Shown here piece after piece: positions 1,567-17,640 of a stretch of 21,009 nucleotides of DNA. The notes beneath the pieces were generated by a model that did no database searches, was not told the origin of the DNA, and was given only the letters and a program-made list of their open reading frames with translations. A program made the translations under genes and the position numbers. The stretch comes from a virus, in IMG/VR virus record IMGVR_UViG_3300037153_000207, positions 1 to 21,009 of that record. One strand, written 5' to 3'. Each line of letters starts with the position of its first letter. Position 1 is the first letter of the stretch.

Positions 1567-3791
1567 TGCCTCTACTGACATCACAAACACCCAACATAGG
1601 CGAGCTTAAGATAAGCGAATACAAGGTTGTGGTGCTTGATGTTGACTCTGGCACTAGTCAGGATCTTTCGCAGTTAGTATCTTCTATCCAGTGGGATTAT
1701 GATCTTGATCAACCTGCTGAGCATTACACTATCACTTTTGTACATACTGAGAACATTGCGAAGAAAGTCAAGCCAGGCGACAGAATAAAGCTGTATGGTT
1801 GGGCGGTACGGCCAGTAGGCAGCAATATAGAGATGTACTGGGAGCTACTCAAGAGAGTCTATATTGTAGAAACTTCACTGAGTAGTGATCAGGGTGGGAC
1901 TCTTAAAGCTACTGGCTACAACGTCATGTGGTATATCATGCGTAACAAAGATACTGTTATGCTTGAGAAAGAGACTGCCAGCCAGTTTATCACCAGGACA
2001 GCCGCTTACTATGGTATTCCATTGGGTACCATTATGGATACTGGTGTACAGCTAGAACGCGAACCGTTCATAAACCGTACTGTGTGGGACATGTGGGTAT
2101 CTGCGCTGTCTTATACCAGAGATCTTAATGCTAGTGCGCGTTTTATCTTGCAAGAGAAAGATGGCAAAATAGAACTGATAGCGCGTACACCTTCAAGCGG
2201 CATCTGGAACTTCCATCGCGGCATGTTCGAGCCTGGCCCAAATTCTTGGAATAATAACCCTGGTAACATTTTTTCTTCTGTCAACAACTTCAGTATGCAG
2301 AATTACTCAAATGTTATCAGGGTCTACAAAGGTAGTAGTGGCAGCAGTAGTTCTAACCCGTTAGAAGGTGGCGGTGATTCCAGTACGCCGATGTTGCAGT
2401 TTCAGTATCCTGCACAAGCTATAATTGAGGCTGGTGGTGACAAAGAGATAGAAAAGTACGGCATGTTTGTTGAGTCTGTTGATTTGCAAGCACCTGGAGA
2501 AGCTGCACTAGATCTAGGTAACGATGGATCAAATGCAGAACAACAGGGTATGAAGCTGTACAAGAAGTTGGTAAAGTTTGAGAACACAGGTACCATCACT
2601 ACCTTCAATATCAACACCATACGCCCTGGAGATGCAGTACATATACGGGACGAAATTACTGGTCTGGTAGGCAAATACTACGTCAAATCTGGCAACCATA
2701 TGATATCCGATCAAGAGGCTTCAATGTCTCTTACGGTAAATATTGAAGACGCGTTGCCAGAGGCTTATGAAGCCAGAGCACAAACTAAGTCTGGTGCTGG
2801 TTTGCTCGGTAGTACAGGTGGTGGGCAAGTTGCCGCCCCGTCTGGTAGGAACTGGACCATTATGGGTGGTTCTGTTCCTATACCAGATAGATATGCGTTG
2901 GCTGTTTCTGCTGGCTTCAACGCTGGCGAAGATGCGTTGAAGATGACCACTATCAGTTTGTACGAATGTGGCAACTGCAATATGGAGGAAGTTAATCCAT
3001 CTGGCGACGTTGGATTGTGGCAAATCAATAGCCAGCACTGGCCTACCTATGGTGGTCCTGATGTATTGAAGAATCCACCTGCTGCTGCTAGAGCTGCCTA
3101 TGGTATCTGGAAGGGTGCTGGTGGTGGTGAAGCAGGATTCAGGCAGTGGTGTGTCTATCCTAATGGTTGTGGATTAACGCCTGGTACACATAATCAGCCT
3201 ACGGTAGAGGCATTCAATGCCAAATTGGCTGAAGTACGTGCTATAGTAATGTCTGGCGGTACCAAGGCTGACACTGGATGGGCACCTGTGGATGTGCGAG
3301 GTAAGCTACCAACTAATCATGAAGCAAACTATGATAAAAGGGACCTGGCTGGCATCACTGGTATTACTTTGCATTTTACTGATGGACCGGCTAGTCAAAC
3401 AGTTTACCAGATAGCGCAGTATCAAACATCTGAAGATGCCAGGGGCCAGACGGGTAACGATACTCCATTCCCAGGTCTGGCATATACATTCTTTGTAGAG
3501 CAGGATGGTAAGACGTCACAAGCATGGGATCTTGATGTAGCTACCTGGCACAGTTCGGCACCAGGCAGAAACACACACAATATCGGTATCTGTTATTCTG
3601 GTAATGTTGCACCCAATGCAGCCCAGATAAATGGCATGGCACAGGCTATCGGCTATTGTCAGAAACAATTAGGCAGAAAGATTGGTGTTGAAGGCCACAA
3701 GGATTATTCACTTGAGGCAACTCAGTGTCCTGGTCCAACATGGCCTAGTTGGCGACAAGATATCATGTCTGGGATTCCTCTAACTTTCTAA
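1566..3791 (+). CDS. Tail hub (gpD/XkdQ-like) fused to transglycosylase-like and amidase domains
   Basis: Likely the central hub or spike base of the tail, carrying its own cell-wall hydrolases (741 residues). Residues about 15-400 resemble the late-control-D/XkdQ/gp27-like hub family: early '[21 protein letters not shown]', a '[11 protein letters not shown]' strand, and '[14 protein letters not shown]' near 350. A Gly/Ser linker (about 256-275) interrupts it. Residues about 440-565 look like a lysozyme-type transglycosylase: E467 in '[11 protein letters not shown]' as candidate acid, then '[13 protein letters not shown]' and 'GFRQWCVY'. Cysteines 468, 471, 529 and 535 could form disulfides. 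Residues about 575-735 are an Amidase_2/T7-lysozyme-like domain with expected zinc ligands H603 (LHFTDG), H711 (GHKD) and C721 (QCPGP), and Y640. The start overlaps the previous stop. Hub and amidase calls are firm; the transglycosylase call is good but motif-based. Confidence 0.85.
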
Positions 3792-5062
3792 TGCCTACAC
3801 TTGATGGTCCGCAAAAATTACTAGATGTTCTACGCACTATAGCGGACAATGAGGACAAGCTCAATGCACTAACTGGCACGGGGTTAGTGCTTAGGACTGG
3901 TGTTGTCCTTACACCATTGCCAGAACTAACTATCTCTATGGATGGTGAAACATCTATGGGTGGTCCGATGATCTTCGACCATTCCCAGGGTGATTTGCTC
4001 ATACCAGAGGATCTGTTCCTTACCAAGGGCGATACAGTTGTTCTAGCACCAATATCCAAGAGACGTTGGGTAATTTTGTTCAAGACGAGAACCACCAACG
4101 AACAAATATATCGTGCGCGGTATGGCTTGAACAACGATAGAGCTGGTGGTGCATTTGCTGGTCTGGAAGTTATAGAGGATCCCGTAACTGGACAGGTCAC
4201 GATTAATCTGGTTGGTGGTATCACTAATGTTAGTGGCGGTACTACTAACGTCAACGGCGATAATGTATTTGTTAATAACTCGGAAATAGCTGAAGACGTC
4301 ATTGTTGGTCCGCCTGGTCCTGCAGGACCAGCTGGCCCTCCCGGTCCTCAAGGTTCTCCCGGAGCTGACAGTACCGTTGTAGGACCAGTTGGTCCAGCAG
4401 GACCACAGGGCAATCCTGGGCCTACTGGTCTTGCAGGCCCCAAGGGTGATACTGGTGCTGCTGGTCCACCAGGCCCCAGAGGCTATGAAGGCCCAGAAGG
4501 TCCAAGAGGTCCACAAGGTCTCATGGGGCCGCAAGGCTTTGATGGTAAGACTGGGCCACAGGGTCAGCAAGGTGTAAAGGGTGACCCTGGACCTAAAGGT
4601 GATACTGGTCCTAAGGGAGATCCTGGGCCGCAGGGTGTTATGGGCACCCCTGGAGCTACTACTACGGGCGCACACGAGGAGTTTGTGCCATCTTTAGGCC
4701 AAACAGTAGTAACGCTAAGTATGCCTGCACTTACCCTCTTGATGGTGTCTAGAGGTGGTGTTGTACAGTCCATAGTAGACGGTGATTATGCCCTTACTGA
4801 TGATGGCAATACGGTTACTTTCAGCGACCCATTCAACGGCACAGAACGTGTTATAATCTCATATGGTGCTGCGACGATGGCTGGTGCTGATACAGAGTTA
4901 CGTCTATATGTTGCAAATATGATGGCACTACTTGATCCAGGAGGAGTACCACCGCCGCAGGCATCAACTGCACAAGGTCCAGCAATTGACGCAGAGCTAC
5001 GTACATATATCCAGACTATCATGGCGAAACTTGATCCAGGCGGTCCGCCTGCACCACCATAA
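3791..5062 (+). CDS. Collagen-like tail fibre protein
   Basis: Probable surface fibre of 423 residues. An N-terminal region of about 170 residues (probably the attachment or trimerisation part) contains beta-rich segments and ends in a Gly/Asn/Val-rich stretch. Residues 173-290 are 38 Gly-X-Y triplets, 7 then 31, split by a four-residue STVV interruption. They are rich in GPP, GPQ and PKGD(T/P), triplets known to stabilise bacterial collagen triple helices. A globular beta domain follows (about 295-365). The C-terminus has two copies of a 33-residue unit around '[17 protein letters not shown]' and '[17 protein letters not shown]'. The frame is open back to 3749, but ATG 3791 overlaps the previous stop (TAATG) like its neighbours and avoids a 43-base overlap. 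Collagen-like domains are common in phage fibres; the receptor is unknown. Confidence 0.85.
4307..4660 (+). repeat. Collagen Gly-X-Y repeat region
   Basis: The segment encodes 38 uninterrupted-in-phase Gly-X-Y triplets apart from one four-residue break after the seventh triplet. Proline is frequent at X, and Pro, Gln, Lys or Asp-containing pairs are frequent at Y/X. At DNA level the repeat is degenerate (ggN cca/cct ...), so it is an old or purified array rather than a recent expansion. Confidence 0.93.
4889..5059 (+). repeat. Tandem 33-residue C-terminal repeat of the collagen-like protein
   Basis: Two tandem copies 99 bases apart, beginning at 4889 and 4988; the second is truncated by the stop. 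Each encodes D-(T/A)-ELR-x-Y-(V/I)-x-x-(M/I)-MA-x-LDPGG followed by a Pro-rich tail. The helical part followed by a Pro-rich linker looks like a small oligomerisation motif; that role is inference. Confidence 0.8.
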
Positions 5063-5482: not shown

Positions 5483-8400
5483 GTGGCTATCACAGCTCGT
5501 ACGCCGACGACTGGCACGGCTGCTAGCAGTGCGGGCTTCACGGTCACGCTGCCCGCGAGCACCGCCGTGGGCGACATGCTCATTGTGGCGGTGTCTTCGG
5601 CCAGCGTGAATGCTGTCGCCACGCCGTCGGGATGGACTCTGGGCGGCAACTTCTCAGCAGGCACCAACGAGGGCTTGACCGTCTTCTCGGCACGTTATGT
5701 GGCAGGCCTGACGCTGAGCTTCACCAACGCCAACGGTGTCAGCGTGTGGATCTGCAACGCCTTCTACGAGTCGGCGGGCACAGGCCTCATCTACCTCGAT
5801 GGCAACCCCATCGGCGCCTCCAACAGCACCAACAACACGACCGTGCCTACGGGCGCTCCCGTGGCAACGGGCAACGTCGCGGGCGACTACGAGGTGCTCA
5901 TCTACTCGTGGTCCAGCAGCGGCACGATCACTTTCAACGCCAGCACCACCAAGGACTCGGCCAATATCAATAACGGCTCGAGCATCGCTGGTGCGATGGG
6001 CCACGCCAATGCGACACTAGGTGCGAATGCGACAGCTACGGCCTGGAGCGCTACACTGTCGGGCAACAACACGCGCAAGGTCGGCGTCGGCTGGCTGCTG
6101 ATGTCGGTACCTACACCTACGACGGCTATCGGCATCACAGACAACTTTGACGACAGCTCGATCGGCAGTCAGTGGACGTCGTATACAAATGCTGGCGGCA
6201 CCGTCACAGAGACAACCTCATTGGCTATTGCTCCGTCGGGAACAAGCGGTGCATACAATGGTGTCTTCTCAACAGCGGCATACGACCTGACGGGAAAATA
6301 CGTCTACGTTCAATTCGCGGCGTTTTTGAATTCGACCACGGGAGACGTCGCTTCGTTTCAGGCCCAGATCGATTCGTCCAACTATCTGGAATGGGCGCAG
6401 GTTGATAACAGTCTTTATGCTCGCCGCAATGTAAGCGGCACGCTTACCAGCTACGGTTCGATGGCACTACCCGCTCCAGGTACGTATGTTCGTATCCATG
6501 AATCGGGCGGCGTGGTGTACATGATGTATGCCACTAATCCCATTGGTACTTGGACACTGATGGGGCGTGGTCCGAATCCCATCGCAGTCACCGCGCTGTA
6601 TATTGTGATCCAGGCGGGCTGCTATCAAGCTGTTGCTTCGCCAGGCACGGCTCGCTTCGACAACCTCAACTACGTCTCGTACAAGAATCTAACGGGCAGT
6701 GCCAGTGGCCTGACGGTTTCGCCAGCAGATACGTATCGTACTACCATCCTGGCAGACAATCCTGTAGCATTCTATAGGATGGACGAGACGTGGCCTGGAC
6801 AGCCAGGTGGCGATGTACTTCTTACTGACTCTGGACCCAATAATCGCTGGAATTACATAAACAAGGGATACGAGACATACGGCATTACAGGTGCTTTGTC
6901 TCGTGGTGATCCAGCTATAAATTTCAATGGAATGTCTGGAGCGTATGCGCAGACACCCTATCAACCTGAACTAAATGGTTCTGGGCCATTTACAGTAGAA
7001 GGTTGGATGCGTGTTGCGTCGTGGCCTGCTGTAGATGCTCCTTTGTTCAGTATGGGTAATGCTGGAACGAATGATGCATTTCTACACTGTGTGGTACGTA
7101 ACGGGCTGCCTTATTTTGGTTTCTATGGTGACGATTATGCACCATCGGGATCAGCTCTAAGCCTGAACGTTTGGCATCATCTAGTCTACGTGTGGGAAGG
7201 TCCAGGCACAAAAGTGCAGAGGATCTACGTAGATGGTGTGCAATGGGGAACTGGTAGAACTAGTACAAACAATCTCAATGTCTCTTCGACCAATGGTTAT
7301 GTTGCCAGACAAACCAGTTATAATCTCAATGGTGACCTTGATGAGATTGCTTTGTACGGCACAGCATTATCACAAGCTCAGGTAACGGCACATTATAACG
7401 CAGCTTCAAATAGTCCAATCAAGCTAAGTGCCAAAAGAATACTGCGTTGGCCGTATGGTATCAATACTCTAGATACGTCTAGAGGAAGAGCTGGTGTTAG
7501 CGGTGTACCGTACAGTAGTGTTGTTATGCAAGATAGTCCAATGCTCTATTGGCGTCTTGGTGAAATCACTGGTACTACGGTTAACGATAGCTCTGGCAAT
7601 GGACGCGGTGGTACACTGAATACTGGAGTATTGTTCCAAGCTAATGGTGTGTTGCCGTTTGATACGGATGGTGCAGCAGATCTTCCAGGTACTTCAAACG
7701 CATACATACAGGGACCATATCTAAACGTGTTCCAGGGTGGTGCTGCTTGGACGGTAGAGATGTGGGTAAATCCATCGGGAATATGGGGGCCTGGTGCTGC
7801 ACATCCTATGTTCCATTGCGGAGATGCTCAGGCAAATAATCAATGGCTTACGTGTGAATGTACTGGTCCCATTCCCGAACTAAGATTTTATGGTAATGAT
7901 ACCACAGGTGGTGCACCATTTCTGCAACCTGGGCGTCATCATTTAGTCTGGCAGTATGAAGGAACTGGTACCAAGATACAGCGTATCTATGTTGATGGTG
8001 TACAGTGGGACAACAGAACAGCTACTGCCAATCTAAACGTTCTTACAGGATCCCAAACGGGTAACGGTTTCAGGGTTGGTGCTGGACATTTTCAAGGTGG
8101 TGCTTTCAATGGTAGGATAGATGAAGTAGCTGTCTATCCAACTTTCTTGTCGCTTACCAGAATCCAAGCACACTATAATGCAGGATGGGGTGTTAGTCCT
8201 TCACCTGGTATTAGTAGGAAGAGATCTATAACAGCACTTTCTGCTGGTACATCGTCTGTAGTTGTTACTATACTGAAACGCCCTAGTCTTTTTGGTACTG
8301 CTGTGGGTGTAGCTACCGACGTTGGACAATCATCCAGAAAAGTACTTCTTGGAAACCGTTTGTCAGTTGGCGTAGCTGTCACAAGTGGTTTAATTGACAA

Positions 8401-9313
8401 GGGTGCTTCGATAAGAAATATTACTGGTATTACTTCTGGTCTTGCCCTTACTACTGGTACGCTAACTGCACGAAGGTCTTTGACTGGTATATCTGCTGGC
8501 AAAGCTACTGATGTGGGACAACCTGTTATACGTCGTAGTGTAACTGGAGCCTCTACTGGTATAGCCACTGATGTTGGGAACCCGAGTGTAAGAAAAGCAT
8601 TGGTTGTTGCGTCTGCTGGTAAAGCGATTACGTCTGGGCAGATTTTTGCTAGAAGATCTATTGCTGTCACGGCAGCAGGCGTCGCGACTGTATCAGCTCA
8701 ACTCACTATACGTTCCAGTACCATACCTCCTGTAACGGTTGCTGGCAAAGCCACGACATCTGCTACGATTGGACGTAAGCGACAATTGGTAGCGACTTCA
8801 GTAGGTATTGCTACTGTTGCTGTATCTATAGTGCGCAAGAGAGCACTCGTTGCTACGTGTGTGGGTGTGGCAGCAACAACGGGTGTAATGAGCCATAAGA
8901 TATCGCTTATATCTCTTGGCGCGACAGGTATAGCCACTACCACTACCGCTATCATACAGCGTAAGCGTAATCTTGTAGCTTCTTCTGTTGGTATAGCTTC
9001 CACGTCTACTATTCAAGTTCTCACTAAACGTGCTATAGCAGGTACTTCAAACGGACTGGCAGTAACATCACGGGCACAACTAACGACAGTACGTAGACTT
9101 GTAGGTGTGACTGCTGGTAGAGCGATAGTACATGGTAGGGTGGTAAACGTGGGTCTCATACTCTGGAACGGATCTACTTTTACACTAGCAGGTAGTTATC
9201 CTGTGGTATTATGGGACCAAGCGGAATTTCAAACAGAATATACGGAAGGTGAGACTTTGGACTACGTGGCGTACAGAGACTCCACTGACCAATTCAACCC
9301 AATAGAACCATGA
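5483..9313 (+). CDS. Giant multidomain adhesin with lectin-like (LamG) domains and 20-residue repeats
   Basis: A 1276-residue probable tail fibre or adhesin binding cell-surface glycans. Domains by inspection: residues 1-210, a beta domain with 'VGDMLIVAVSS' and 'SGWTLGG'; about 215-400, a ConA-like beta-sandwich ('NFDDSSIGSQWTSY' to 'GTARFDNLNYVSY'); about 416-642, a LamG/ConA-type lectin fold ('NPVAFYRMDE', 'FTVEGWMRV', 'WHHLVYVWEG', 'QRIYVDGVQW', 'GDLDEIALYG'); about 678-902, a second LamG copy ('SPMLYWRLGE', 'WTVEMWVNP', 'RHHLVWQYEG', 'QRIYVDGVQW', 'GRIDEVAVYP'); 912-1222, about fifteen 20-residue repeats; then a C-terminal cap. There is no signal peptide or TM. The GTG start lies 9 bases after the previous stop with only a weak, distant purine-rich site. 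Its end overlaps the next gene (ATGA). The first 1.2 kb has foreign-looking base composition. The lectin folds are convincing; ligand and position on the virion are inferred. Confidence 0.8.
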   Translation: MAITARTPTTGTAASSAGFTVTLPASTAVGDMLIVAVSSASVNAVATPSGWTLGGNFSAGTNEGLTVFSARYVAGLTLSFTNANGVSVWICNAFYESAGTGLIYLDGNPIGASNSTNNTTVPTGAPVATGNVAGDYEVLIYSWSSSGTITFNASTTKDSANINNGSSIAGAMGHANATLGANATATAWSATLSGNNTRKVGVGWLLMSVPTPTTAIGITDNFDDSSIGSQWTSYTNAGGTVTETTSLAIAPSGTSGAYNGVFSTAAYDLTGKYVYVQFAAFLNSTTGDVASFQAQIDSSNYLEWAQVDNSLYARRNVSGTLTSYGSMALPAPGTYVRIHESGGVVYMMYATNPIGTWTLMGRGPNPIAVTALYIVIQAGCYQAVASPGTARFDNLNYVSYKNLTGSASGLTVSPADTYRTTILADNPVAFYRMDETWPGQPGGDVLLTDSGPNNRWNYINKGYETYGITGALSRGDPAINFNGMSGAYAQTPYQPELNGSGPFTVEGWMRVASWPAVDAPLFSMGNAGTNDAFLHCVVRNGLPYFGFYGDDYAPSGSALSLNVWHHLVYVWEGPGTKVQRIYVDGVQWGTGRTSTNNLNVSSTNGYVARQTSYNLNGDLDEIALYGTALSQAQVTAHYNAASNSPIKLSAKRILRWPYGINTLDTSRGRAGVSGVPYSSVVMQDSPMLYWRLGEITGTTVNDSSGNGRGGTLNTGVLFQANGVLPFDTDGAADLPGTSNAYIQGPYLNVFQGGAAWTVEMWVNPSGIWGPGAAHPMFHCGDAQANNQWLTCECTGPIPELRFYGNDTTGGAPFLQPGRHHLVWQYEGTGTKIQRIYVDGVQWDNRTATANLNVLTGSQTGNGFRVGAGHFQGGAFNGRIDEVAVYPTFLSLTRIQAHYNAGWGVSPSPGISRKRSITALSAGTSSVVVTILKRPSLFGTAVGVATDVGQSSRKVLLGNRLSVGVAVTSGLIDKGASIRNITGITSGLALTTGTLTARRSLTGISAGKATDVGQPVIRRSVTGASTGIATDVGNPSVRKALVVASAGKAITSGQIFARRSIAVTAAGVATVSAQLTIRSSTIPPVTVAGKATTSATIGRKRQLVATSVGIATVAVSIVRKRALVATCVGVAATTGVMSHKISLISLGATGIATTTTAIIQRKRNLVASSVGIASTSTIQVLTKRAIAGTSNGLAVTSRAQLTTVRRLVGVTAGRAIVHGRVVNVGLILWNGSTFTLAGSYPVVLWDQAEFQTEYTEGETLDYVAYRDSTDQFNPIEP
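5486..6715 (+). other. GC-rich, compositionally distinct module
   Basis: From the first codons of the giant adhesin to about residue 411 the DNA is clearly richer in G+C, with third positions mostly C or G (for example 'gcgggcttcacggtcacgct'). The change is strongest in 5486-6100 and milder to 6715, after which the usual A/T-tolerant codon use returns. The left edge coincides with the gene start. The right edge coincides with the junction between the ConA-like domain and the first LamG domain. This is consistent with acquisition of one or two domains from a GC-rich donor. Boundaries were judged by eye. Confidence 0.75.
6728..8188 (+). repeat. Duplicated LamG-like lectin modules
   Basis: Two related modules of about 225 residues (6728-7408 and 7514-8188) share ordered motifs, most clearly 'GTK(V/I)QRIYVDGVQW' followed by T-x-x-NLNV, and C-terminal 'AHYNA'. 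Protein similarity is higher than DNA similarity, so the duplication is not recent or the copies arrived separately. Confidence 0.8.
8216..9148 (+). repeat. Array of about fifteen 20-22-residue repeats in the adhesin shaft
   Basis: Basic pairs (RK, RR, KR or HK) recur at residues near 913, 933, 953, 978, 997, 1017, 1037, 1057, 1077, 1098, 1118, 1138, 1160, 1182 and 1204, giving a period of 20 rising to 22. The unit is roughly (R/K)(R/K)-x-(L/I/V)-x-(G/A/V)-x-S-x-G-(I/K/L/V)-A-(T/V)-x-x-(A/G)-x-(I/V/L)-x. It has two short beta-prone strands split by Gly. DNA copies are diverged. An elongated beta-solenoid or fibrous shaft is a reasonable inference; I do not recognise a named repeat family. Confidence 0.85.
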
Positions 9314-12054
9314 CGAAGCAGCAAGTCGCCAACAATATGCTCAAGGATTTTCCTTGGGATGGTACGGAGCTAGTTGCACCTTTGACGTTGCCTGGTGCTT
9401 TGTTGGCTTCGTCTTATGTTGAACAGAAATGGATTGCCACACCAGCTAATCCTCCAGTTGGCAGCTTGCGGTTGTATCCCAAGGCGGATGGTAAATACTA
9501 CCAGTTAGACTCTGCTGGCAACGAACAGATTATCAGTGGTCAAAGCCAGGCCCAGAATGATACACGTTATTTACAACTAACTGGCGGCACACTAACTGGC
9601 CCACTGACGCTTACTAATCTCGCTGCTCAGAACATTGCTGCGTCTGGAAGTGTAACTGCAGATGGTATAGTCGCCAACACTTACAAGTGGACGCCAGCCA
9701 GTGATGGTGAATCTCTGTACAAAGAGATGCCTGGTAGACTGCGCTTGTCTGGAGCTATGCTAACTGTCGACCAAAACCTAAACGTCGGTAGTTATACACA
9801 GCTTGCTGAAATTGCAACGCCAGTGACTCCCAATACAGGTCAAGTGCGTCTGTATGCAAAGACAGATCACAAGGTGTACATTAGGGACACTACAGGCGTA
9901 GAGACAGACTTGACTTTTATGGGTCTTACACTGGCGGATACTGATGCCAGGTATCCACAGAAGACAGATGTTGATCCTTACCCTCAGTATGTAACAGAGG
10001 TTGAGGGTGATGCTCGTTATGCTTCTAATCCTGGTGGGCCTAGTGGTGGATACCTTACTGTATCTGCTGCCGCTGCTACTTATCTACCATTAGCAGGTGG
10101 GACGCTAACTGGCAATCTACTATTTTCTACTGATAATACCAAAGATATTGGTGATGCTACTCATCGACCGCGTGATTTGGTTCTGGGGCGCAATCTAGTT
10201 ATAAGTGGTTCTGGCCCACGTATTCTAGCAGATTTCAGTTCAGCACCAAACACTAATCGGCTGATGTTCCAAACTAGTGTGGCAGCTAGTGGTTCTTATG
10301 TTGGTATTCTGCCTAGTGCAGATGACCAGGGTAGTGCGATTATCTGCTACGAGGATGCCGTTCCAGCCAACAGCGCCTACGGGATCATGTGGAATGATGG
10401 TACCCAGGTCAACATTGGCACGGGTGCCAGCGGTGCAGGTATCCCGAAGGGTCTATCAATCTGGTCCAGTGGTGAGAAGTGGCGTATTCCAGTTGCTGGT
10501 CATCTACTAGCTGGTGCGAACAGCACCTATGACATTGGTGATAGTGGTGGTACTGGCAAGCCACGTGATCTCTTTGTAGGTCGAGACTTGTTTATGGGTC
10601 GCAACCTGAAAGTTGACGGCTATACCTTATTGGGTAGCGGCATGGCAGCTGGTGCCAATCAGGTTGTCCAGGCATTTGCTGGTGGAAATAGCAGTGGTGA
10701 TCAGGTCGGTTATCACATGTACTCTAAGGCGGGTACATTACAGGCTGAGCTGTGGACCGATGCTGCTGGCGGCACTACACGTCTGAAGTCTAATGGTGTG
10801 CTTGCATTTCACACTGGAGCAGGTAGCACTGGCTTTACAGCTACCAACCAGCGTGTGAGTATTGATGCAGCAGGCGCGATGAATTTTGGTGTTGCCTCAC
10901 CTCCACCGTTTATACGTGCTAACCCTGGAGCAACTTCAGCGTTAGATATCCAGTCGCCTACTAATTATCTGATGCTGCAATCCAAATCTGGAACGCATAT
11001 GACGGGCAATTTGTACTGGGACGGTACGAATTGGCAGCGTTATGATACGGCTGCGGCAGGTAGTTTGTGGATTGCTTCGGGAGGTTTAGGCTACTTCTAT
11101 TCGGTTGCTGCTGGAGCAAATCCTGCAAGTTTATCACAACGTCTTTCTATTGACAATACTGGCGCTCTTATTGCTGCGGGTAACATAACGGGCAGATGGC
11201 TATATACCAGTGATGGCTCCAATGGTGTATTGTACGCAGGAGCTGGTGATCTATACTTGCGCACAGGTTCAGCTGGAAATACTTATCGCTTTGATACTGG
11301 CGCAAATATAGTTGTTGCTGGTGGTGCCACTTTTGGCAATCACGTGATGATATCACAAGCAACAGGAGGCATCGGTTCTGGTGGTGGCAGTGAGGGACAA
11401 CTAGAGTTACAGAATGCTGGTAGTGGTGCGTCCAAGATTGCATTCCATAGAGTAGGTGCATACGCTGCATATCTTGGTCTTGATACTGATAATGTGTGGG
11501 CTGTCGGTGGTTGGAGCATGGGTGCTATTCGTTACCCACTTCACCACGATGGTAATTATCCAGTAAGCCAGAGTGCTAGTGGTAGCACGTTAGTGCAGCG
11601 TACTGTCAACGGCTACATCTACTGTAATTATATCAATTGTACTGCAGACGTCCCTGGTGGCAAGCCAGCTTACGTCTGGGGTGATAATGGTGATGCGTTC
11701 GCACGGAGGTGGCCGATATCAGCAGTCGGCCCCCCTAGTTTATGGAACTGGAGCGGCGGCAACGGTGCTGGCGTTACAGTTCCATACACAGGATATTATA
11801 GAGTTAGTGTCGTGTTGCGATGTGTTGGTGGTAGTAATTGTGGTGATTCACATGGCTGGAACTGGATATATCGCAATGGTGGCGGCATATTTTATTGTGA
11901 TTGGAATGATGCCTTGAATGGTGGAGGTGCTTCTGGTATAGTTTTGTGTAATGCTGGAGATACACTGTCAAGCAATGCTGGTGTAGGCACATCTTTCAGT
12001 GAGTACACATTCTGGGCCACCTTTTGCCCTTCTTCTCAGTACCCTGGTAACTAA
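9310..12054 (+). CDS. Tail fibre protein with C1q-like C-terminal domain
   Basis: A 914-residue phage tail fibre. It carries motifs typical of long fibres: 'PPVGSLRLYPKADGKYYQLD' and its partner 'NTGQVRLYAKTDHKVYIRD' (near 48 and 175); 'YLQLTGGTLTGPLTL' and 'YLPLAGGTLTGNL' (near 87 and 258); and 'TKDIGDATHRPRDLVLGRNL' and 'TYDIGDSGGTGKPRDLFVGR' (near 277 and 406). Near 758-800 is the 'LVQRTVNGYIY' stretch often preceding fibre tips. Residues 808-914 form a Cys-containing beta domain ('VPYTGYYRVSV', 'NCGDSHG', 'NAGDTLSS') resembling C1q/TNF-type jelly rolls, also found on the protein at 16307-17332. No intramolecular chaperone domain is visible. The start overlaps the adhesin stop (ATGA), so the two are likely co-translated. 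The fibre call is strong; the jelly-roll call is inference. Confidence 0.85.
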   Translation: MTKQQVANNMLKDFPWDGTELVAPLTLPGALLASSYVEQKWIATPANPPVGSLRLYPKADGKYYQLDSAGNEQIISGQSQAQNDTRYLQLTGGTLTGPLTLTNLAAQNIAASGSVTADGIVANTYKWTPASDGESLYKEMPGRLRLSGAMLTVDQNLNVGSYTQLAEIATPVTPNTGQVRLYAKTDHKVYIRDTTGVETDLTFMGLTLADTDARYPQKTDVDPYPQYVTEVEGDARYASNPGGPSGGYLTVSAAAATYLPLAGGTLTGNLLFSTDNTKDIGDATHRPRDLVLGRNLVISGSGPRILADFSSAPNTNRLMFQTSVAASGSYVGILPSADDQGSAIICYEDAVPANSAYGIMWNDGTQVNIGTGASGAGIPKGLSIWSSGEKWRIPVAGHLLAGANSTYDIGDSGGTGKPRDLFVGRDLFMGRNLKVDGYTLLGSGMAAGANQVVQAFAGGNSSGDQVGYHMYSKAGTLQAELWTDAAGGTTRLKSNGVLAFHTGAGSTGFTATNQRVSIDAAGAMNFGVASPPPFIRANPGATSALDIQSPTNYLMLQSKSGTHMTGNLYWDGTNWQRYDTAAAGSLWIASGGLGYFYSVAAGANPASLSQRLSIDNTGALIAAGNITGRWLYTSDGSNGVLYAGAGDLYLRTGSAGNTYRFDTGANIVVAGGATFGNHVMISQATGGIGSGGGSEGQLELQNAGSGASKIAFHRVGAYAAYLGLDTDNVWAVGGWSMGAIRYPLHHDGNYPVSQSASGSTLVQRTVNGYIYCNYINCTADVPGGKPAYVWGDNGDAFARRWPISAVGPPSLWNWSGGNGAGVTVPYTGYYRVSVVLRCVGGSNCGDSHGWNWIYRNGGGIFYCDWNDALNGGGASGIVLCNAGDTLSSNAGVGTSFSEYTFWATFCPSSQYPGN
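11731..12051 (+). repeat. Shared C-terminal domain, copy 1
   Basis: This encodes residues 808-914 of the 914-residue fibre. It aligns along its full length with the C-terminus of the protein at 16307-17332 (copy 2 at 17012-17329). Shared blocks are LWN(W/Y), G-NG-x-x-V-x-VPYTGYY, GG-x-NCGD-(S/A)-HG, WND, C-x-AG-T, FS-x-Y and a final QY. Loops between blocks differ, as expected for paralogous receptor-binding tips. Confidence 0.88.
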
Positions 12055-12066
12055 GGAATTAAGACG

Positions 12067-12351
12067 ATGACAATACCTCCAGCTACTTACGGCAAGACGA
12101 CTCCTGGGCTTGCGCCTGGAAATTCTTATGAGGTCAATGCTTCAATTGGTGCTCATCTGCGGTCATTTGTAGATATTAAAGAAACCATTGCACATGATTA
12201 CGATGGCTTATTAGGTGTGGACCTAAAAGCCGAGCCTTACAATATGACACCTGAAGATGAGACTCTTATTAAGTCCGCAATTAGCGACCTGCATACTTCT
12301 TTGGAAGCTGTCAATATGACTTGGATCAATCGTCTAACAGGATTGTGGTAA
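12067..12351 (+). CDS. Small phage protein of unknown function
   Basis: A 94-residue protein I do not recognise. It starts with a Pro/Gly/Thr-rich stretch of about 20 residues ('PPATYGKTTPGLAPGN') and continues with mostly helical sequence: 'IGAHLRSFVDIKETIAHDYDG', then 'MTPEDETLIKSAISDLHTSL' and a final 'MTWINRLTGLW'. No signal peptide, TM segment or catalytic motif is seen. A Shine-Dalgarno-like aaggaa at 12053-12058 precedes the ATG by about eight bases. It lies between the fibre cassette and the baseplate wedge genes and overlaps the next gene (TAATG). A fibre-assembly or tail accessory role would fit the place but is not shown by the sequence. Confidence 0.7.
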   Translation: MTIPPATYGKTTPGLAPGNSYEVNASIGAHLRSFVDIKETIAHDYDGLLGVDLKAEPYNMTPEDETLIKSAISDLHTSLEAVNMTWINRLTGLW

Positions 12352-12686
12352 TGAGGTATATTCCATTACGTACTGTGCGTATTGAAAATGCTCCTGATTT
12401 TGAGTATGCAGAAGCTATACGTACAGTTATTCGCCAACCATTGGATGCTAACAGAGGTGTGAACATTGATGAAATGCGTCGTGGCATTCGCATTCTTGAT
12501 AAACTTGATGCGGCTACAGACATACTCGAACTCGAAGATGCAGACTACGACCACCTCAAAGCCAAGGTAGAGGCGATGCAATGGGGTATGGTGGACCGTA
12601 ATTTGCTACAGTTTATTGATACAGTACTCGGTGCTACAGAAGCAAGTAGCAGCAATGGATTGGTGACGCCTGCTAAGGTGATGTAA
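12351..12686 (+). CDS. Small phage protein of unknown function upstream of gp25-like gene
   Basis: A 111-residue, predominantly helical, acidic protein. Visible segments: 'YIPLRTVRIENAPDFEYAEA', 'VNIDEMRRGIRILDKLDAA', then 'LELEDADYDHLKAKVEAMQW' and 'MVDRNLLQFIDTVLGA'. The shape recalls small helical proteins next to structural genes in many phages, but I cannot name a family. The reading frame is open to an ATG at 12321; I prefer ATG 12351 because it overlaps the previous stop exactly (TAATG), as its neighbours do, and its end overlaps the next gene in the same way. Tight coupling suggests a defined stoichiometry with the baseplate genes. Confidence 0.7.
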   Translation: MRYIPLRTVRIENAPDFEYAEAIRTVIRQPLDANRGVNIDEMRRGIRILDKLDAATDILELEDADYDHLKAKVEAMQWGMVDRNLLQFIDTVLGATEASSSNGLVTPAKVM

Positions 12687-13153
12687 TGCCAGTAACCACG
12701 GTACCAAGGTTTGAAGATCCAGCGTTCTCTATAGACACTCTTAACCCATCTACTGAACCAGTTTGGGGTGTAGCACCACGCCTGAACTTTGAGAACAACG
12801 ATGGGCAGTTGTTTATGTTCAACAATGCCAACGAGTTTGTCTTTGCTAACGAAGCAATGACACTCGAGCAGTTGATCGTAAAGTCAATGATTACTGAGCG
12901 TCTTACATACCATGCTTATGACAAAGAGTTTGGTTCCGATTTCTGGACTATCCTTGGACGTGGGCTAAGTGAACTGGCTGTACAAGCTGTGGCAGAAAGA
13001 TTTACCAGAGAAGCTCTGGGCAATATCAATCTGATACGGTCTATGGACCAGTTTGTTACCAGTGTACGAGGAGACCAATTATATCTTTCATTTCGCGTCA
13101 TAACTGTAACTGGACACGAGAAAGAATTTAGTTTCGCAAGGACCATACGGTGA
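12686..13153 (+). CDS. Baseplate wedge protein, gp25/XkdS-like
   Basis: A 155-residue protein resembling the XkdS (DUF2634)/gp25 group of baseplate wedge proteins. These link the hub and sheath to the wedge and are related in fold to type VI TssE. Supporting pattern: after an N-terminal region with two beta hairpins ('NDGQLFMFNNANEFVFA'), the core reads 'ITERLTYHAYDKEFGSDFWT', an amphipathic helix 'LAVQAVAERFTREALG', and a C-terminal beta meander 'DQLYLSFRVITVTG'. The order XkdS-like, Baseplate J, XkdU-like that follows is the standard order in PBSX-type operons. Both ends overlap neighbours (TAATG at the start, GTGA at the end). Confidence 0.75.
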   Translation: MPVTTVPRFEDPAFSIDTLNPSTEPVWGVAPRLNFENNDGQLFMFNNANEFVFANEAMTLEQLIVKSMITERLTYHAYDKEFGSDFWTILGRGLSELAVQAVAERFTREALGNINLIRSMDQFVTSVRGDQLYLSFRVITVTGHEKEFSFARTIR

Positions 13154-14796
13154 CAACAATTACCTCAGTGTCTCCTTCGCTGTCCCAGGTTGGAGTTGAT
13201 ACAACGTTGGAGATTGCTGGGACTGGATTCTTGACTACCAGCACGGCAAAGCTGGTAAGCCCGGAAGATCCACCTGTCGAATACGCTATGACCAACTTCC
13301 AGTTGGTTACTAGCGAGATGATGCGTGCAACCGTGCAGGCCAACGTAGTCCCAATCGGGTTCTATACCGTTGTGGTTGATAACGGTGGCGAAGACGTAGC
13401 ACAGCTGGATGCAGCATTCAGGATCAGTGTCAATCTGCCTGTAAGACCATTCTTGACAAACAACACAACAGATGTTATCCAGCAGCGTATTATGGACCGC
13501 ATTGGGATAGCACCCAACGGGTTGCCATATGACAAGCGCAAGGGGCAAGTGCCTTGGGATATGACTGCTGCACAGGCACCTGAGTTTGAGAAGATCTACA
13601 AGCGCCTGGATGATCTGTTTCCGCAGGGTTTTGCGCAGTTTATGGGTGGTGCGCTGTTAGACCTGCGTGCTGAAGAGCATGGTATACTGAGGAATATTGC
13701 TAGTTTCTCACGTACTGTAATGGAAGTCACAGCGCCAGTAGGAACTGTCATTCCCAGCGCCATAAGATTTAGCACCACGGCTGTACCCAATACCGCGGAC
13801 AGGCCTCTTGTATTCAATGGCATTGAAACTGCCAATATCATATACAAGAATCCTGTGTCTGGTCTGGTAACAAGCGGTACGGCAACTAGTCTTACAGATA
13901 ATACTGCGGCATTTGTGGTAGATGAGTGGAAAGATTATTATGTCTTGATCACTCTGGGCAAGGGTATTGGACAGTGGCGCAAAGTAATCAATAATAACGC
14001 TAATACCCTGAACGTTTCAGATTGGGATACTGGTAATATACCCAACAATACGTCTACATACAAACTGTTCACGGGTGTAGCAGCACAAGCAGATAGAGCA
14101 GGCAGGGCGAGCAACGTGCTGGCTGGAGCGATCAACAGGTTGGCTGTACCTGTTGCGTTCGTTAGTAAAGTATCTAACCCTGTAGATTCTGTAGATGGTG
14201 TAGATAGAGAATCAGATAGACTGTTCTTGAGCAGGTTCCTGCTGACGGTGCGCCAACGTTCTGCTGGCGGTAACGATACAGACTATCAGATCTGGGCTAG
14301 AGAAACGCCAGGTACTAGTTTGGGTCCAGTCAGTGTGTTGGAAGAGTGGGCTGGATATGGTACCGTCAAAGTAGTTATAGTCAATTCGGACAATACTATT
14401 TCGGATGCAGCTACCGTTAGCAAAGTATACGACTATATCCAGACGCGGAGACCTATCGGTGCGCATGTAACGGTAGAAGCAGCTGTTGGTGTGTTGATTG
14501 AAGCTAATTTTACTTTGACGGTCAAGTCTGGCTTTAGTCTAGTGGCTGTACAGGAAGAAGTTAGACAAGCAATTTCTACTTACCTGAATACTGTACCTGT
14601 TGGTGGCGACGATGGCTTTGTAATGTTCTATCGTGTGCAGCAAGCCGCCATTAATGAAGTCGATGGTATTGATACTTTTAACATGTATTCCACAGGCTAC
14701 GGTATCAGGAGATCGGGAGCTCCTAGCTTCAGTACAGCAGATGTTACGGTAACAGGTACTGAGAAACCAGTTGCAGGGACGGTTACAGCTGCATGA
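13150..14796 (+). CDS. Baseplate J-like protein with N-terminal IPT/TIG domain
   Basis: A 548-residue structural baseplate wedge protein of the Baseplate J family (Mu gp47, XkdT). Residues about 3-95 form an IPT/TIG immunoglobulin-like domain: 'ITSVSPSLSQVGVDTTLEIA', 'GTGF', then 'GFYTVVVDNGGED'. The family core runs from about 105 to the end. It includes 'ERFPQ'-type helices near 155, 'GTVIPSAIRFSTT', the typical acidic/basic run 'VDGVDRESDRLFLSRFLLTV', and 'YQIWARETPGTSLGPVSVLE' followed by 'GYGTVKVVIVNSD' and 'RRPIGAHVTVE'. The GTG start at 13150 overlaps the upstream stop (GTGA), and the C-terminus overlaps the next gene (ATGA). The IPT/TIG addition is unusual for the family and may decorate the wedge exterior. 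The phrase 'ERFPQ-type' is descriptive only; the visible text there is 'RLDDLFPQGFAQF'. Confidence 0.9.
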   Translation: MTTITSVSPSLSQVGVDTTLEIAGTGFLTTSTAKLVSPEDPPVEYAMTNFQLVTSEMMRATVQANVVPIGFYTVVVDNGGEDVAQLDAAFRISVNLPVRPFLTNNTTDVIQQRIMDRIGIAPNGLPYDKRKGQVPWDMTAAQAPEFEKIYKRLDDLFPQGFAQFMGGALLDLRAEEHGILRNIASFSRTVMEVTAPVGTVIPSAIRFSTTAVPNTADRPLVFNGIETANIIYKNPVSGLVTSGTATSLTDNTAAFVVDEWKDYYVLITLGKGIGQWRKVINNNANTLNVSDWDTGNIPNNTSTYKLFTGVAAQADRAGRASNVLAGAINRLAVPVAFVSKVSNPVDSVDGVDRESDRLFLSRFLLTVRQRSAGGNDTDYQIWARETPGTSLGPVSVLEEWAGYGTVKVVIVNSDNTISDAATVSKVYDYIQTRRPIGAHVTVEAAVGVLIEANFTLTVKSGFSLVAVQEEVRQAISTYLNTVPVGGDDGFVMFYRVQQAAINEVDGIDTFNMYSTGYGIRRSGAPSFSTADVTVTGTEKPVAGTVTAA

Positions 14797-15446
14797 GAGA
14801 GAAAGATTTCTACGGTTGGGGCGAGATTCTTATGGAGAATCTGCCCACTTACTGGGAAGAAGACGACTTTATGCAGCAGTTCCTTATGGCTGTAGGGTTT
14901 GAATTCGATCCAGTAGATAGATTCACGCGTTTTATGATAGATGGTGAAATCCAGAAAGCTATCGCACAGCAACTGACTGCCAATCTCGAACCAATGCATT
15001 CGGCATGGTTTGTGCGCACTGCTGATGAGCGGGCAATGGAAATGTGGGAGCAAATGTTCAGTGCGCCCACTGATAGCACTGCGACGCTAGAAGAACGTAG
15101 GGCTAACATCATTGCTAGGATGCAGGGTACCGCCACCCCAACACCAGCGTATGTGCACTCTCAGATTGCTAACTATGCGGATGAGATTGCAGTCATAGAG
15201 TATTTCGATTTGCCGCCCGATGATCTTCGGCGTTATAGTTTTAGCATACGTATCATCAAGCCCAAAGGATTTCCGCCCAACGTCCAGCAAAATATCGATC
15301 TCATGATCAAGCGTATCAAACCATCACATCTGGGCTACTTCATAGAATACAGTGAAGTAACTTGGTTTGGTGATAACACCAATATGTATGATAGAACTTG
15401 GGCAGATCTCGGCAACATAACCTGGGCAGATCTCCGATTTGAGTAA
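14793..15446 (+). CDS. Tail protein, YmfQ/XkdU-like (Mu gp48 group)
   Basis: A 217-residue baseplate protein. It follows Baseplate J directly with an ATGA overlap, the normal place for YmfQ/XkdU/Mu gp48 proteins. The sequence fits: a helical N-terminus ('ILMENLPTYWEEDDFMQQF'), 'AWFVRTADERAMEMWEQMF', the family-typical 'TLEERRANIIARMQG' followed by 'PAYVHSQIANYAD', and late 'IKPSHLGYFIEYSEVTW'. The C-terminus has repeated TW elements: TWFGD, RTWADL, ITWADL. These proteins cap the baseplate wedge and often precede tail-fibre genes; two surface-protein genes do follow here. Confidence 0.82.
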   Translation: MREKDFYGWGEILMENLPTYWEEDDFMQQFLMAVGFEFDPVDRFTRFMIDGEIQKAIAQQLTANLEPMHSAWFVRTADERAMEMWEQMFSAPTDSTATLEERRANIIARMQGTATPTPAYVHSQIANYADEIAVIEYFDLPPDDLRRYSFSIRIIKPKGFPPNVQQNIDLMIKRIKPSHLGYFIEYSEVTWFGDNTNMYDRTWADLGNITWADLRFE

Positions 15447-15455
15447 GGTGAGCAA

Positions 15456-16310
15456 ATGCAAACAACCGTTCGGCACGGATTTCTACTTCCAGAGGTGACT
15501 GATGATGACCCTACACCCAACGCAGGTGTTAGGGACACTACCAGATATAATTCAAATCTTAGTGATAGAAGTACGTTTTTCGATTTCAATGAGACCATAA
15601 CTGGCAGATGGGCGTTCAATACCATCACATTGCTCAATGGTTTGAGCCAGGATATGGTCAACAACACAGGCGCGGCCAGGGTTCCTGGTGATGTAGTACA
15701 GCTTGATCCTAACGTTGACCGTAGCGTTATCATGCCTGTGCTCGGTGCTGTCGGCCCTCAGGTTGGTATTATAGTTGAGAACATCGCAGCTGGCGCGGTT
15801 GGACGCGTTGCGATGGAAGGATTTGTACGCGCCAAAGTCACAGGTATTACCCGTCTGCAATACCTCGTGACACAGGATAACAGTGTTATAGCTGCTGGTC
15901 AGAGCTTTGGTAGTAGCGCAGCATTTGGGATTGCTCTGGAGAACCCATCTGGCGGTACGGCACTGGCTTACCTGCACCCTAGTGCTGGTACTGACCCAGA
16001 AAGCATGTACAAAGGCGCGATGTTGCGCTCTAATGCTGCAACAGTCACAGCTGCTATGCTTACTGGCAGACTATTCTTCTTTGGATATCTAGCAACTGCA
16101 CAGAATGTCATACTGCCAGACCCAACCATAACTGAGCGTCCTATTACTATTACAGCTGAGGCAGGACAAATCAACGTAACTGCAACTGGAGGCTCTGCTA
16201 TTGTTGGTGGCTCTACCAACTTTACAACTGGAGCAATCCAGAACGGCGTGATTGTAGCCCCTGATGCTTTTACTTTCAAGAGTAATGGTATCCAGTGGAG
16301 AGCCTCATGA
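15456..16310 (+). CDS. Probable tail structural/fibre protein, unknown family
   Basis: A 284-residue protein with mostly beta-type sequence. The N-terminus is polar ('TRYNSNLSDRSTFFDFNETI'). The central part (about 75-175) contains 'VPGDVVQLD', 'VGIIVENIAAGAVGRVAMEG' and 'TQDNSVIAAGQSFGSSAAFG', a rhythm like SH3-like capsid cement or decoration proteins (loose resemblance only). The C-terminus (about 225-284) has 'PITITAEAGQINVTATGGSA' followed by 'NGIQWRAS', compatible with a fibre cap. A Shine-Dalgarno-like aaggtgag overlaps the previous stop. It lies just after the YmfQ-like gene, where fibre genes usually sit, and overlaps the next gene (ATGA). A virion surface role is likely; specific function unknown. 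Confidence 0.6.
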   Translation: MQTTVRHGFLLPEVTDDDPTPNAGVRDTTRYNSNLSDRSTFFDFNETITGRWAFNTITLLNGLSQDMVNNTGAARVPGDVVQLDPNVDRSVIMPVLGAVGPQVGIIVENIAAGAVGRVAMEGFVRAKVTGITRLQYLVTQDNSVIAAGQSFGSSAAFGIALENPSGGTALAYLHPSAGTDPESMYKGAMLRSNAATVTAAMLTGRLFFFGYLATAQNVILPDPTITERPITITAEAGQINVTATGGSAIVGGSTNFTTGAIQNGVIVAPDAFTFKSNGIQWRAS

Positions 16311-17332
16311 CATACGCCGCTACGCAGGTTGCTTATTGGGTTGGTCAGGCTAACGATAACAGCACAGGTCAGCATCCGCCTGGATACGTTGTTAGCCAGA
16401 GATGGTCTGCTACGTCCAATACCTGGATGACCATGTATAACACAGAGTATGCCAATGCTCGTGACAATAGTGCAGGTCAGCCAGGCAAACCTAGCGGTAG
16501 TCAGCATCCTACAGGGTGGGTAGCGGGACAGTTATGGTCTGTTACTGCTACTCAGTGGAACACCATGTGGGGTACTGAGTGGACCAATGCTAGGGATAAC
16601 TCTGGTGGACAAACAAGCTCTGGCTTGGGCGCACAGCATCCTGGCGGTTGGGGCGCTGGACAGTTCTGGTCTACTACGGCTGAGCAATGGAATGCTATGT
16701 GGGGTACCGAATGGCGCAATGCCAGAGACCCACAGGGTTATTCCTACAGTTATCCTGGGCAGGCTGCAAATGCTGTCTACTGGAGTCAGTCTGCGCAATA
16801 CTGGCGTGGACAAGCAGACTACTACTGGGGACCAAACAGAGTCTGGAATAATGGCTCTACTTGGGAGCAATTGTACAACCTCTATGTAGGCTACTACAAT
16901 GACATGGTTTCCCAGAGAGACACCTGGCAGTCAAGAGCTAATAACGCCTGGGGTCCCAATCGTGTATGGTCCAATGGTGAAAGCTGGGAAGCTGCCTACA
17001 ATAGAGTCTTGCCTGCTGCGCTGTGGAACTATCAGGCTGGCAATGGAGGCTCTGTAAACGTTCCATACACTGGCTACTATGTTATGATGGTAAAAGCGTT
17101 TGCCATTGGTGGTGATAACTGCGGCGATGCACATGGTAGTCTAGACATCTTCTTTGCTGGCAACAACGTTGGGCACAGTGAATGGAACGACTGGACAACT
17201 GCGGGTAACTGGTACGGTCCAGTGTACTGTGGTGCTGGCACTAACTTTCGCTCACAGGGTGGAAGTGGTAGAGGATTTTCTAACTATTACTTTTCAGTCG
17301 TATTCATTCCAACACCTCAATATGCACATTAG
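16307..17332 (+). CDS. Trp-rich repeat fibre with shared C1q-like C-terminal domain
   Basis: A 341-residue probable receptor-binding fibre or tip protein. Residues 22-141 contain three units with an exact 44-residue period, each QHP-x-G(Y/W)-x-x-x-Q-x-WS-x-T-x-x-x-W-x-x-M(Y/W)-x-TE(Y/W)-x-NARD. Residues about 157-232 contain a second repeat type with 'WGPNRVW' at 174 and 215. Residues 236-341 are a beta domain shared with the fibre at 9310-12054 ('NVPYTGYYVMM', 'DNCGDAHGS', final PQYAH). Trp content is extraordinary, suggesting carbohydrate contact or a tightly packed trimeric shaft. The frame is open to a GTG at 16295, but ATG 16307 overlaps the previous stop (ATGA) and is preferred. Fibre identity is inferred from the C-terminal domain and position. 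Confidence 0.75.
   Translation: MTYAATQVAYWVGQANDNSTGQHPPGYVVSQRWSATSNTWMTMYNTEYANARDNSAGQPGKPSGSQHPTGWVAGQLWSVTATQWNTMWGTEWTNARDNSGGQTSSGLGAQHPGGWGAGQFWSTTAEQWNAMWGTEWRNARDPQGYSYSYPGQAANAVYWSQSAQYWRGQADYYWGPNRVWNNGSTWEQLYNLYVGYYNDMVSQRDTWQSRANNAWGPNRVWSNGESWEAAYNRVLPAALWNYQAGNGGSVNVPYTGYYVMMVKAFAIGGDNCGDAHGSLDIFFAGNNVGHSEWNDWTTAGNWYGPVYCGAGTNFRSQGGSGRGFSNYYFSVVFIPTPQYAH
16370..16729 (+). repeat. Three 132-base repeats encoding Trp-rich 44-residue units
   Basis: Units begin at 16370, 16502 and 16634. The second and third share long protein blocks ('WGTEW', 'NARD', 'AGQ-x-WS'); the first is more diverged. Spacers of about 11 residues between units are Gly/Ser/Pro-rich and less conserved. Confidence 0.9.
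17012..17329 (+). repeat. Shared C-terminal domain, copy 2
   Basis: This encodes residues 236-341 of the Trp-rich fibre and is paralogous to 11731-12051. Stretches such as 'VPYTGYY' and 'NCGD-x-HG' are identical or nearly so, and the flanking DNA (for example 'gttccatacac') is also conserved. Confidence 0.88.
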
Positions 17333-17340
17333 GAGGATTC

Positions 17341-17640
17341 GTGGCTGATATCGTCCTCAAGATGAATATTAGGACAGCAAGAAAACTGTCCTATGCTATT
17401 GGGCATTCTGACGAAGCGAACGCTGTGGTGTATGCAGCTACCAACGCTGCCAAAGTAGCTGAGCAGAATGTTCGTGATATCATCAACTTGATAGCAGACG
17501 AACAGGGTGTCAAATTGCCATATCATTACGGTGTAATGTTTGATGAAGATGTAAACGAAATTACTTTGACTACACAGACGGATGGTATGGCTGGCGTAGA
17601 ATTTAGTCCGACAAATCTGCGTGTGAATGGAATACAATAA
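17341..17640 (+). CDS. Small phage protein of unknown function
   Basis: A 99-residue protein that I do not recognise. The GTG start is supported by a strong Shine-Dalgarno (aggagga at 17331-17337) that overlaps the previous gene's stop. The first two thirds look helical ('KMNIRTARKLSYAIGHSDEA', 'AAKVAEQNVRDIINLIADEQ'); the last third looks like a beta hairpin ('VNEITLTTQTDG'). No TM segment or catalytic motif. It is the first gene after the last fibre-type protein and overlaps the next small gene (TAATG), so it may belong either to the tail accessory group or to the lysis group. Confidence 0.7.
   Translation: MADIVLKMNIRTARKLSYAIGHSDEANAVVYAATNAAKVAEQNVRDIINLIADEQGVKLPYHYGVMFDEDVNEITLTTQTDGMAGVEFSPTNLRVNGIQ

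What the first reader, a model, noticed from the sequence alone, without database searches (positions are those of the whole stretch)
11731..12051. The same receptor-binding-like tip on two otherwise unrelated fibres
The last roughly 105 residues of the 914-residue fibre and of the Trp-rich 341-residue protein (17012-17329) are paralogous, with conserved VPYTGYY, NCGD-x-HG and WND blocks and variable loops between. The proteins upstream of the domain are unrelated. A shared C1q-like tip on two fibres suggests domain duplication and possible recombination between the copies, giving a dual or switchable host range.
Basis: partly seen in the sequence, partly recalled or inferred. Interest (0 to 1): 0.65.

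Follow-up and report, generated by a model that had tools for sequence, protein, structure and literature searches.

The report
Matching C1q-like heads on two fibres
A virus of an unknown bacterium carries the same small C1q/TNF-type binding head on the ends of two otherwise unrelated tail proteins; relatives show that this head is a swappable part, and its preserved loops suggest that both copies grip the same target rather than giving two host ranges.

Summary
The last ~105 residues of the 914-aa fibre and of the 341-aa Trp-rich protein (W341) are homologous (41% over 126 aa, E=5e-22, 32 s.d. above shuffles); the upstream parts are unrelated. Both tips model as an eight-stranded C1q/TNF jelly roll.

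Related IMG/VR contigs give context. W341 has a conserved body (aa 1 to ~237) and an exchangeable head: identity falls to 20-35% there, and six other head types occur. The fibre has a C1q-like head in five lineages and an S74 chaperone in at least five others. One relative, L016, repeats the pattern with a different head type: its two heads are 53% identical to each other. L019 does not match.

The conserved blocks (PYTG, NCGDxHG, WND) lie in loops, which are better conserved than strands, so a shared ligand is likelier than dual host range. There is no sign of recent recombination between the copies (longest shared DNA 11 nt).

Phage C1q heads and tail-module swapping are known. Matched heads on two unrelated tail proteins, seen twice with different head types, is an unusual but thinly sampled variant.

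The parts
9310..12054 (+). 914-aa long tail fibre carrying the first head
   Evidence: fibre repeat region matches PHROG tail protein families; N-terminus conserved in relatives
11485..11727 (+). fibre linker before the head; its GYI..YIN..AD..GG.P.YV.G..GD...R.P part (about 11600-11715) is shared by relatives with different heads
   Evidence: alignment of five fibres
11728..12051 (+). C1q/TNF-fold head of the fibre (tip 1)
   Evidence: homology, structure model and fold search
15456..16310 (+). 284-aa conserved protein whose stop overlaps the W341 start (ATGA); probable partner or attachment protein (inferred from position)
16307..17332 (+). W341, Trp-rich protein behind the Baseplate_J and Gp48-like genes, carrying the second head
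16307..17011 (+). conserved body of W341 with ~44-aa Trp-rich repeats
17012..17329 (+). C1q/TNF-fold head of W341 (tip 2), exchangeable in relatives
13150..14796 (+). Baseplate_J protein, the anchor used to find relatives
14793..15446 (+). Mu Gp48-like baseplate protein

Best explanation
Each protein ends in a C1q/TNF-fold, presumably trimeric, receptor-binding head. Heads are cassettes that start just after a conserved xPP/xPA junction and are replaced as units. In this lineage the fibre and W341 carry the same head type because the head was copied from one gene to the other, or both were replaced by the same type, before the window and L021 separated. Both copies most likely recognise the same surface ligand through the conserved loops NCGD-x-HG, WND and PYTG, so that a long fibre and a shorter baseplate fibre grip one kind of receptor together or in succession. 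Shown: homology, predicted fold, cassette boundary, and a second case (L016). Inferred: trimerisation, receptor binding, the shared ligand, and the direction and mechanism of copying.
For: Homology E=5e-22, z=32. Fibre-head model pLDDT 77.8 with eight strands; Foldseek PDB best hits C1QL1, C1QL3, TNF at E about 1e-4; Z 10-11 to BC2L-C TNF-like lectin, C1QL3, RANKL, BclA and the phi812 central spike knob. W341 head: same strand pattern in its own model and C1q/TNF-type hits. W341 identity to L016, L024 and L019 falls from 0.75-0.95 to 0.2-0.35 at about aa 240. L016 fibre and W heads 53% identical, E=3e-43. Ten-head tree: window fibre with window W and L021 W 98/95, L016 fibre with L016 W 96/95, the two fibre heads as one clade rejected, AU p=1.5e-7. 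Loops better conserved than strands: 21/36 vs 23/68, p=0.022; W vs L021 34/36 vs 43/68, p=3.6e-4. Searches of IMG/VR found the window head type only in L003 and L021 and the L016 type only in L016.
Against: L019 has C1q-like heads on both proteins that do not match; L062 and L015, possibly one genome, do not match either. The window was picked because its heads match, so only L016 is an unbiased second case. In L016 loops are not better conserved than strands (19/45 vs 39/66). In the larger tree with long-branched heads the window grouping is unresolved. No receptor, host or virion data exist. The searches rely on short exact peptide patterns and can miss relatives. The W341 model is confident only in the head.
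Confidence: 0.55

Rival explanations
1. Independent draws from a common pool: each gene picks up heads on its own from co-infecting phages, and the match in the window (and in L016) is coincidence, with no functional coupling.
For: Heads are clearly exchanged between genomes. L019 and possibly L062/L015 have unmatched heads. The window is an ascertained case, so the unbiased count is one match in two or three genomes.
Against: At least seven W head types are known, so a same-type match by chance is uncommon. Each matched type was found only within its own lineage.
Confidence: 0.25
2. Dual or switchable host range: the two heads bind different receptors and recombine to change specificity.
For: The heads are only 41-44% identical, and the framework has diverged. 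C1q heads vary in other phages (PMC3909814).
Against: Loops are better conserved than strands. There is no shared DNA tract beyond 11 nt. No switching machinery was seen in the window.
Confidence: 0.12
3. The head is an assembly or trimerisation module (a cap or registration domain) rather than a receptor binder; matching types reflect folding or contact between the two proteins.
For: C1q/TNF domains trimerise, and on related fibres the same terminal place is taken by an S74 chaperone.
Against: A pure assembly module should be conserved with its stalk, yet the head changes completely over a conserved body. Nearly all relatives keep a C1q-like head on W whether or not the fibre has one.
Confidence: 0.08

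Closest known systems
C1q-domain receptor-binding proteins of phages, e.g. pelagiphage C1q proteins in metaviromic islands (PMC3909814)
   Same: A C1q-fold domain on a tail-region protein, far more variable than the protein's N-terminal part and read as host recognition
   Different: There one variable C1q protein near the tail fibre; here two different tail proteins of one genome carry the same head type, and heads are replaced as a block
Staphylococcus phage 80alpha RBP and FibL (PMC7048315)
   Same: Two tail proteins of one phage with a related (RBP-like tower) domain on different stalks
   Different: The shared domain is a tower domain in the middle of FibL (a weak HHpred match), not a C1q head at both ends
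eCIS tail fibres with C1q or S74 ends (PMC12923769)
   Same: The same choice of C-terminal modules (C1q, S74) on tail fibres, with domain exchange
   Different: Toxin-delivery particles, not phages; no matched pair on two fibres in the passages read
TNF-like lectin domain of BC2L-C (PDB 6tid, 2wq4)
   Same: Top structural match of the fibre-head model, Z 11.0 over 109 residues, tied with C1QL3
   Different: 9-10% sequence identity; sugar binding by the phage head is untested

Membership tests
C1q/TNF-fold superfamily | Jelly-roll fold of the C1q/TNF type | tested here: met
   AF2 model pLDDT 77.8, Foldseek prob 1.00 to C1QL and TNF, VIA Z 10-11; W341 head gives similar hits
C1q/TNF-fold superfamily | Homotrimeric assembly | not testable with these tools
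   Only single-chain prediction was available
Pfam C1q (PF00386) | Sequence match above the family's gathering score | tested here: not met
   No hit for the window proteins at E<=0.001 and none for the fibre head at E<=1; two of 16 aligned heads match, best E 0.0045. Same fold, not a Pfam C1q member by sequence.
Phage receptor-binding protein | Encoded among tail and baseplate genes | tested here: met
   Baseplate_J, Gp48-like and Sheath_initiator genes lie between and beside the two genes
Phage receptor-binding protein | C-terminal domain varies while the attachment part is conserved | tested here: met
   W341; fibre:
Phage receptor-binding protein | Binds a host-surface receptor | not testable with these tools
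   Host unknown; two profile scans of GTDB genomes found no related prophage
Peptidase_S74 intramolecular chaperone | S74 domain at the fibre C-terminus | tested here: not met
   Absent from the window fibre; present in L024 and L009 above the gathering score and in L013, L007 and L032 below it
Diversity-generating retroelement target | Reverse transcriptase and template repeat near the variable domain | tested here: inconclusive
   No RT among the ten proteins scanned and no near-identical repeat of the heads in 5483-17400, but only 21 kb of the genome is held

The most novel reading that the evidence does not exclude
Coupled head exchange: in this phage group, when the receptor-binding head of one tail protein is replaced, the other, unrelated tail protein comes to carry the same new head, so that both fibres keep one specificity. 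Two occurrences with different head types are seen (window and L016).
Probability: 0.3. Interest if true: 0.6.

Novelty: new variant of a known kind. Interest (0 to 1): 0.4.

Why it matters
If heads are copied between two unrelated tail proteins so that both keep the same specificity, a host shift in such phages needs concerted change at two loci, and two binding steps would use one receptor. It gives a concrete case for testing how phages keep several adhesins in register, and it warns against reading every extra fibre as an extra host range.

Tried and rejected
Close relatives of the fibre head alone: none in IMG/VR or GenBank phages; W341 had no GenBank phage match either. PDB by sequence: nothing for the single head; the profile gave only weak hits, C1q-related factor at E 0.1. 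PHROGs: only weak, uninformative hits for the heads. Host by GTDB scans with baseplate J and with the YQBQ-amidase protein: nothing. Recent gene conversion between the copies: no sign. DGR-type loop diversification: no sign, but the genome is incomplete. S74 cap on the window fibre: rejected. L004-L006 share VPYTGYY but lie in an unrelated gene context and match over about 50 residues only. An in-frame version of the L016 fibre junction was not found in viral contigs. Full-length W341 structure: the body is not predicted (pLDDT under 50).

Full report
The window is a 21-kb virus fragment from IMG/VR. It holds the baseplate and fibre region of a probably contractile-tailed phage: a YQBQ-like hub with an amidase, a collagen-like fibre, a protein with two laminin-G domains, the 914-aa fibre, Sheath_initiator, Baseplate_J, a Mu Gp48-like protein, a 284-aa protein and the Trp-rich W341. 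Cultured phages are remote: baseplate J finds only matches under 60% identity, the best covering 66% of the query at 33%.

Observation. The fibre and W341 ends are homologous: 41% over 126 aa, E=5e-22; z=32 against shuffles, while the upstream parts give z=0.3. No third copy lies in the window.

Fold. A model of the fibre head on a 16-row alignment has mean pLDDT 77.8 and eight strands. Foldseek ranks C1QL1 and C1QL3 first with TNF close behind; the structural aligner gives Z 10-11 to BC2L-C TNF-like lectin, C1QL3, RANKL, BclA and the knob of the phi812 central spike. Viral predicted structures with this fold include many phage tail and C1q-annotated proteins. W341's head, modelled separately, shows a similar strand order and C1q/TNF-type hits; its body is not predicted. 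Sequence models of C1q do not reach their cut-off, so the fold claim rests on structure prediction.

Relatives. Baseplate J found 19 related contigs; the W body and the fibre N-terminus added a few. Several contigs are copies of one lineage. W341's body aligns throughout but the head differs. Compared with the window, identity per 20 residues drops to 0.2-0.35 at about aa 240 in L016, L024 and L019, somewhat earlier in L015 and L023, while L021 keeps the same head at 74%. Counting the window, seven W head types are seen: window/L021, L016, L024/L009/L007 and kin, L023 and kin, L019, L015 and L032. The fibre is modular too: a conserved linker is followed by a C1q-like head in the window, L014, L019, L062 and, in a shifted frame, L016. 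L024, L009, L013, L007 and L032 have an S74 domain instead, two above Pfam's cut-off and three below it. The L017/L023 group has an end that looks S74-like by eye but that Pfam does not report. The heads of L014, L019 and L062 are called C1q-like from weak similarity and were not modelled one by one.

Matched heads. In L016 the fibre and W heads are 53% identical and unlike the window's. On a tree of ten heads each fibre head groups with the W head of its own genome (98/95 and 96/95), and putting the two fibre heads together is rejected, p=1.5e-7. In the larger tree with long-branched heads the window grouping is unresolved. The searches that could be run found each type nowhere else; L003, the nearest hit, is a second contig of the same phage with an identical W341. 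L019 does not match, nor do L062 and L015, which come from one metagenome and may be one genome. As the window was picked for its match, the unbiased evidence is one match in two or three genomes: suggestive only.

Function. Mapped on the predicted strands, loops are better conserved than strands between the copies (21/36 vs 23/68, p=0.022) and between window and L021 W (34/36 vs 43/68, p=3.6e-4). NCGDxHG falls mostly in the loop between the third and fourth strands, WND at the end of the fifth strand and the start of the following loop, PYTG in the turn before the third strand. The simplest reading is one shared ligand. In L016 the loops are not better conserved, so this applies to the window's head type only.

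Recombination. The copies share no DNA run longer than 11 nt, within codon-shuffled values, and synonymous distance could not be computed. Any copying is old, and the tree order places it before the window and L021 split.

Verdict. Real, and more than chance: a C1q-type head used as a cassette, most likely for receptor binding. Ordinary in kind (phage C1q heads and module swapping are known, PMC3909814 and PMC12923769; two tail proteins sharing a domain are known in 80alpha, PMC7048315), with an unusual matched-pair pattern worth a larger survey.

Noticed in passing
L016:4640-5033: The fibre head of L016 lies in the -1 frame after a canonical slippery heptamer C_CCA_AAA (4653-4659), followed by a 5-nt spacer and a stable hairpin (z=-2.85). 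Either a programmed -1 frameshift that adds the head to a fraction of fibres, or a one-base deletion or assembly error in the A run.
   Followed up: partly
window 16370-16728: W341 body holds ~44-aa Trp-rich repeats (QHPxGWxxGQxWSxTAxQWNxMWGTEWxNARD), three copies here, copy number varying in relatives; no Pfam, PHROG or GenBank phage match.
   Followed up: partly
window 1566-3791: One protein joins a YQBQ-like tail hub with a weak lysozyme-like match and an Amidase_2 domain, i.e. a tail protein with likely cell-wall hydrolase activity.
   Followed up: no
window 5483-9313: 1276-aa protein with two Laminin_G_3 lectin-like domains and an imperfect repeat region; its counterpart is 1605 aa in L024. 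Another candidate adhesin.
   Followed up: no
window 18449-19594: 381-aa protein with a hydrophobic N-terminus and a long Pro/Thr repeat tail (TPRPTFTPRPTITPRP), conserved in relatives; it may hint at the host group.
   Followed up: no
L014:6618-7133: Extra 171-aa ORF inserted between the baseplate J and Gp48-like genes, not seen there in the other relatives; possibly a mobile gene.
   Followed up: no
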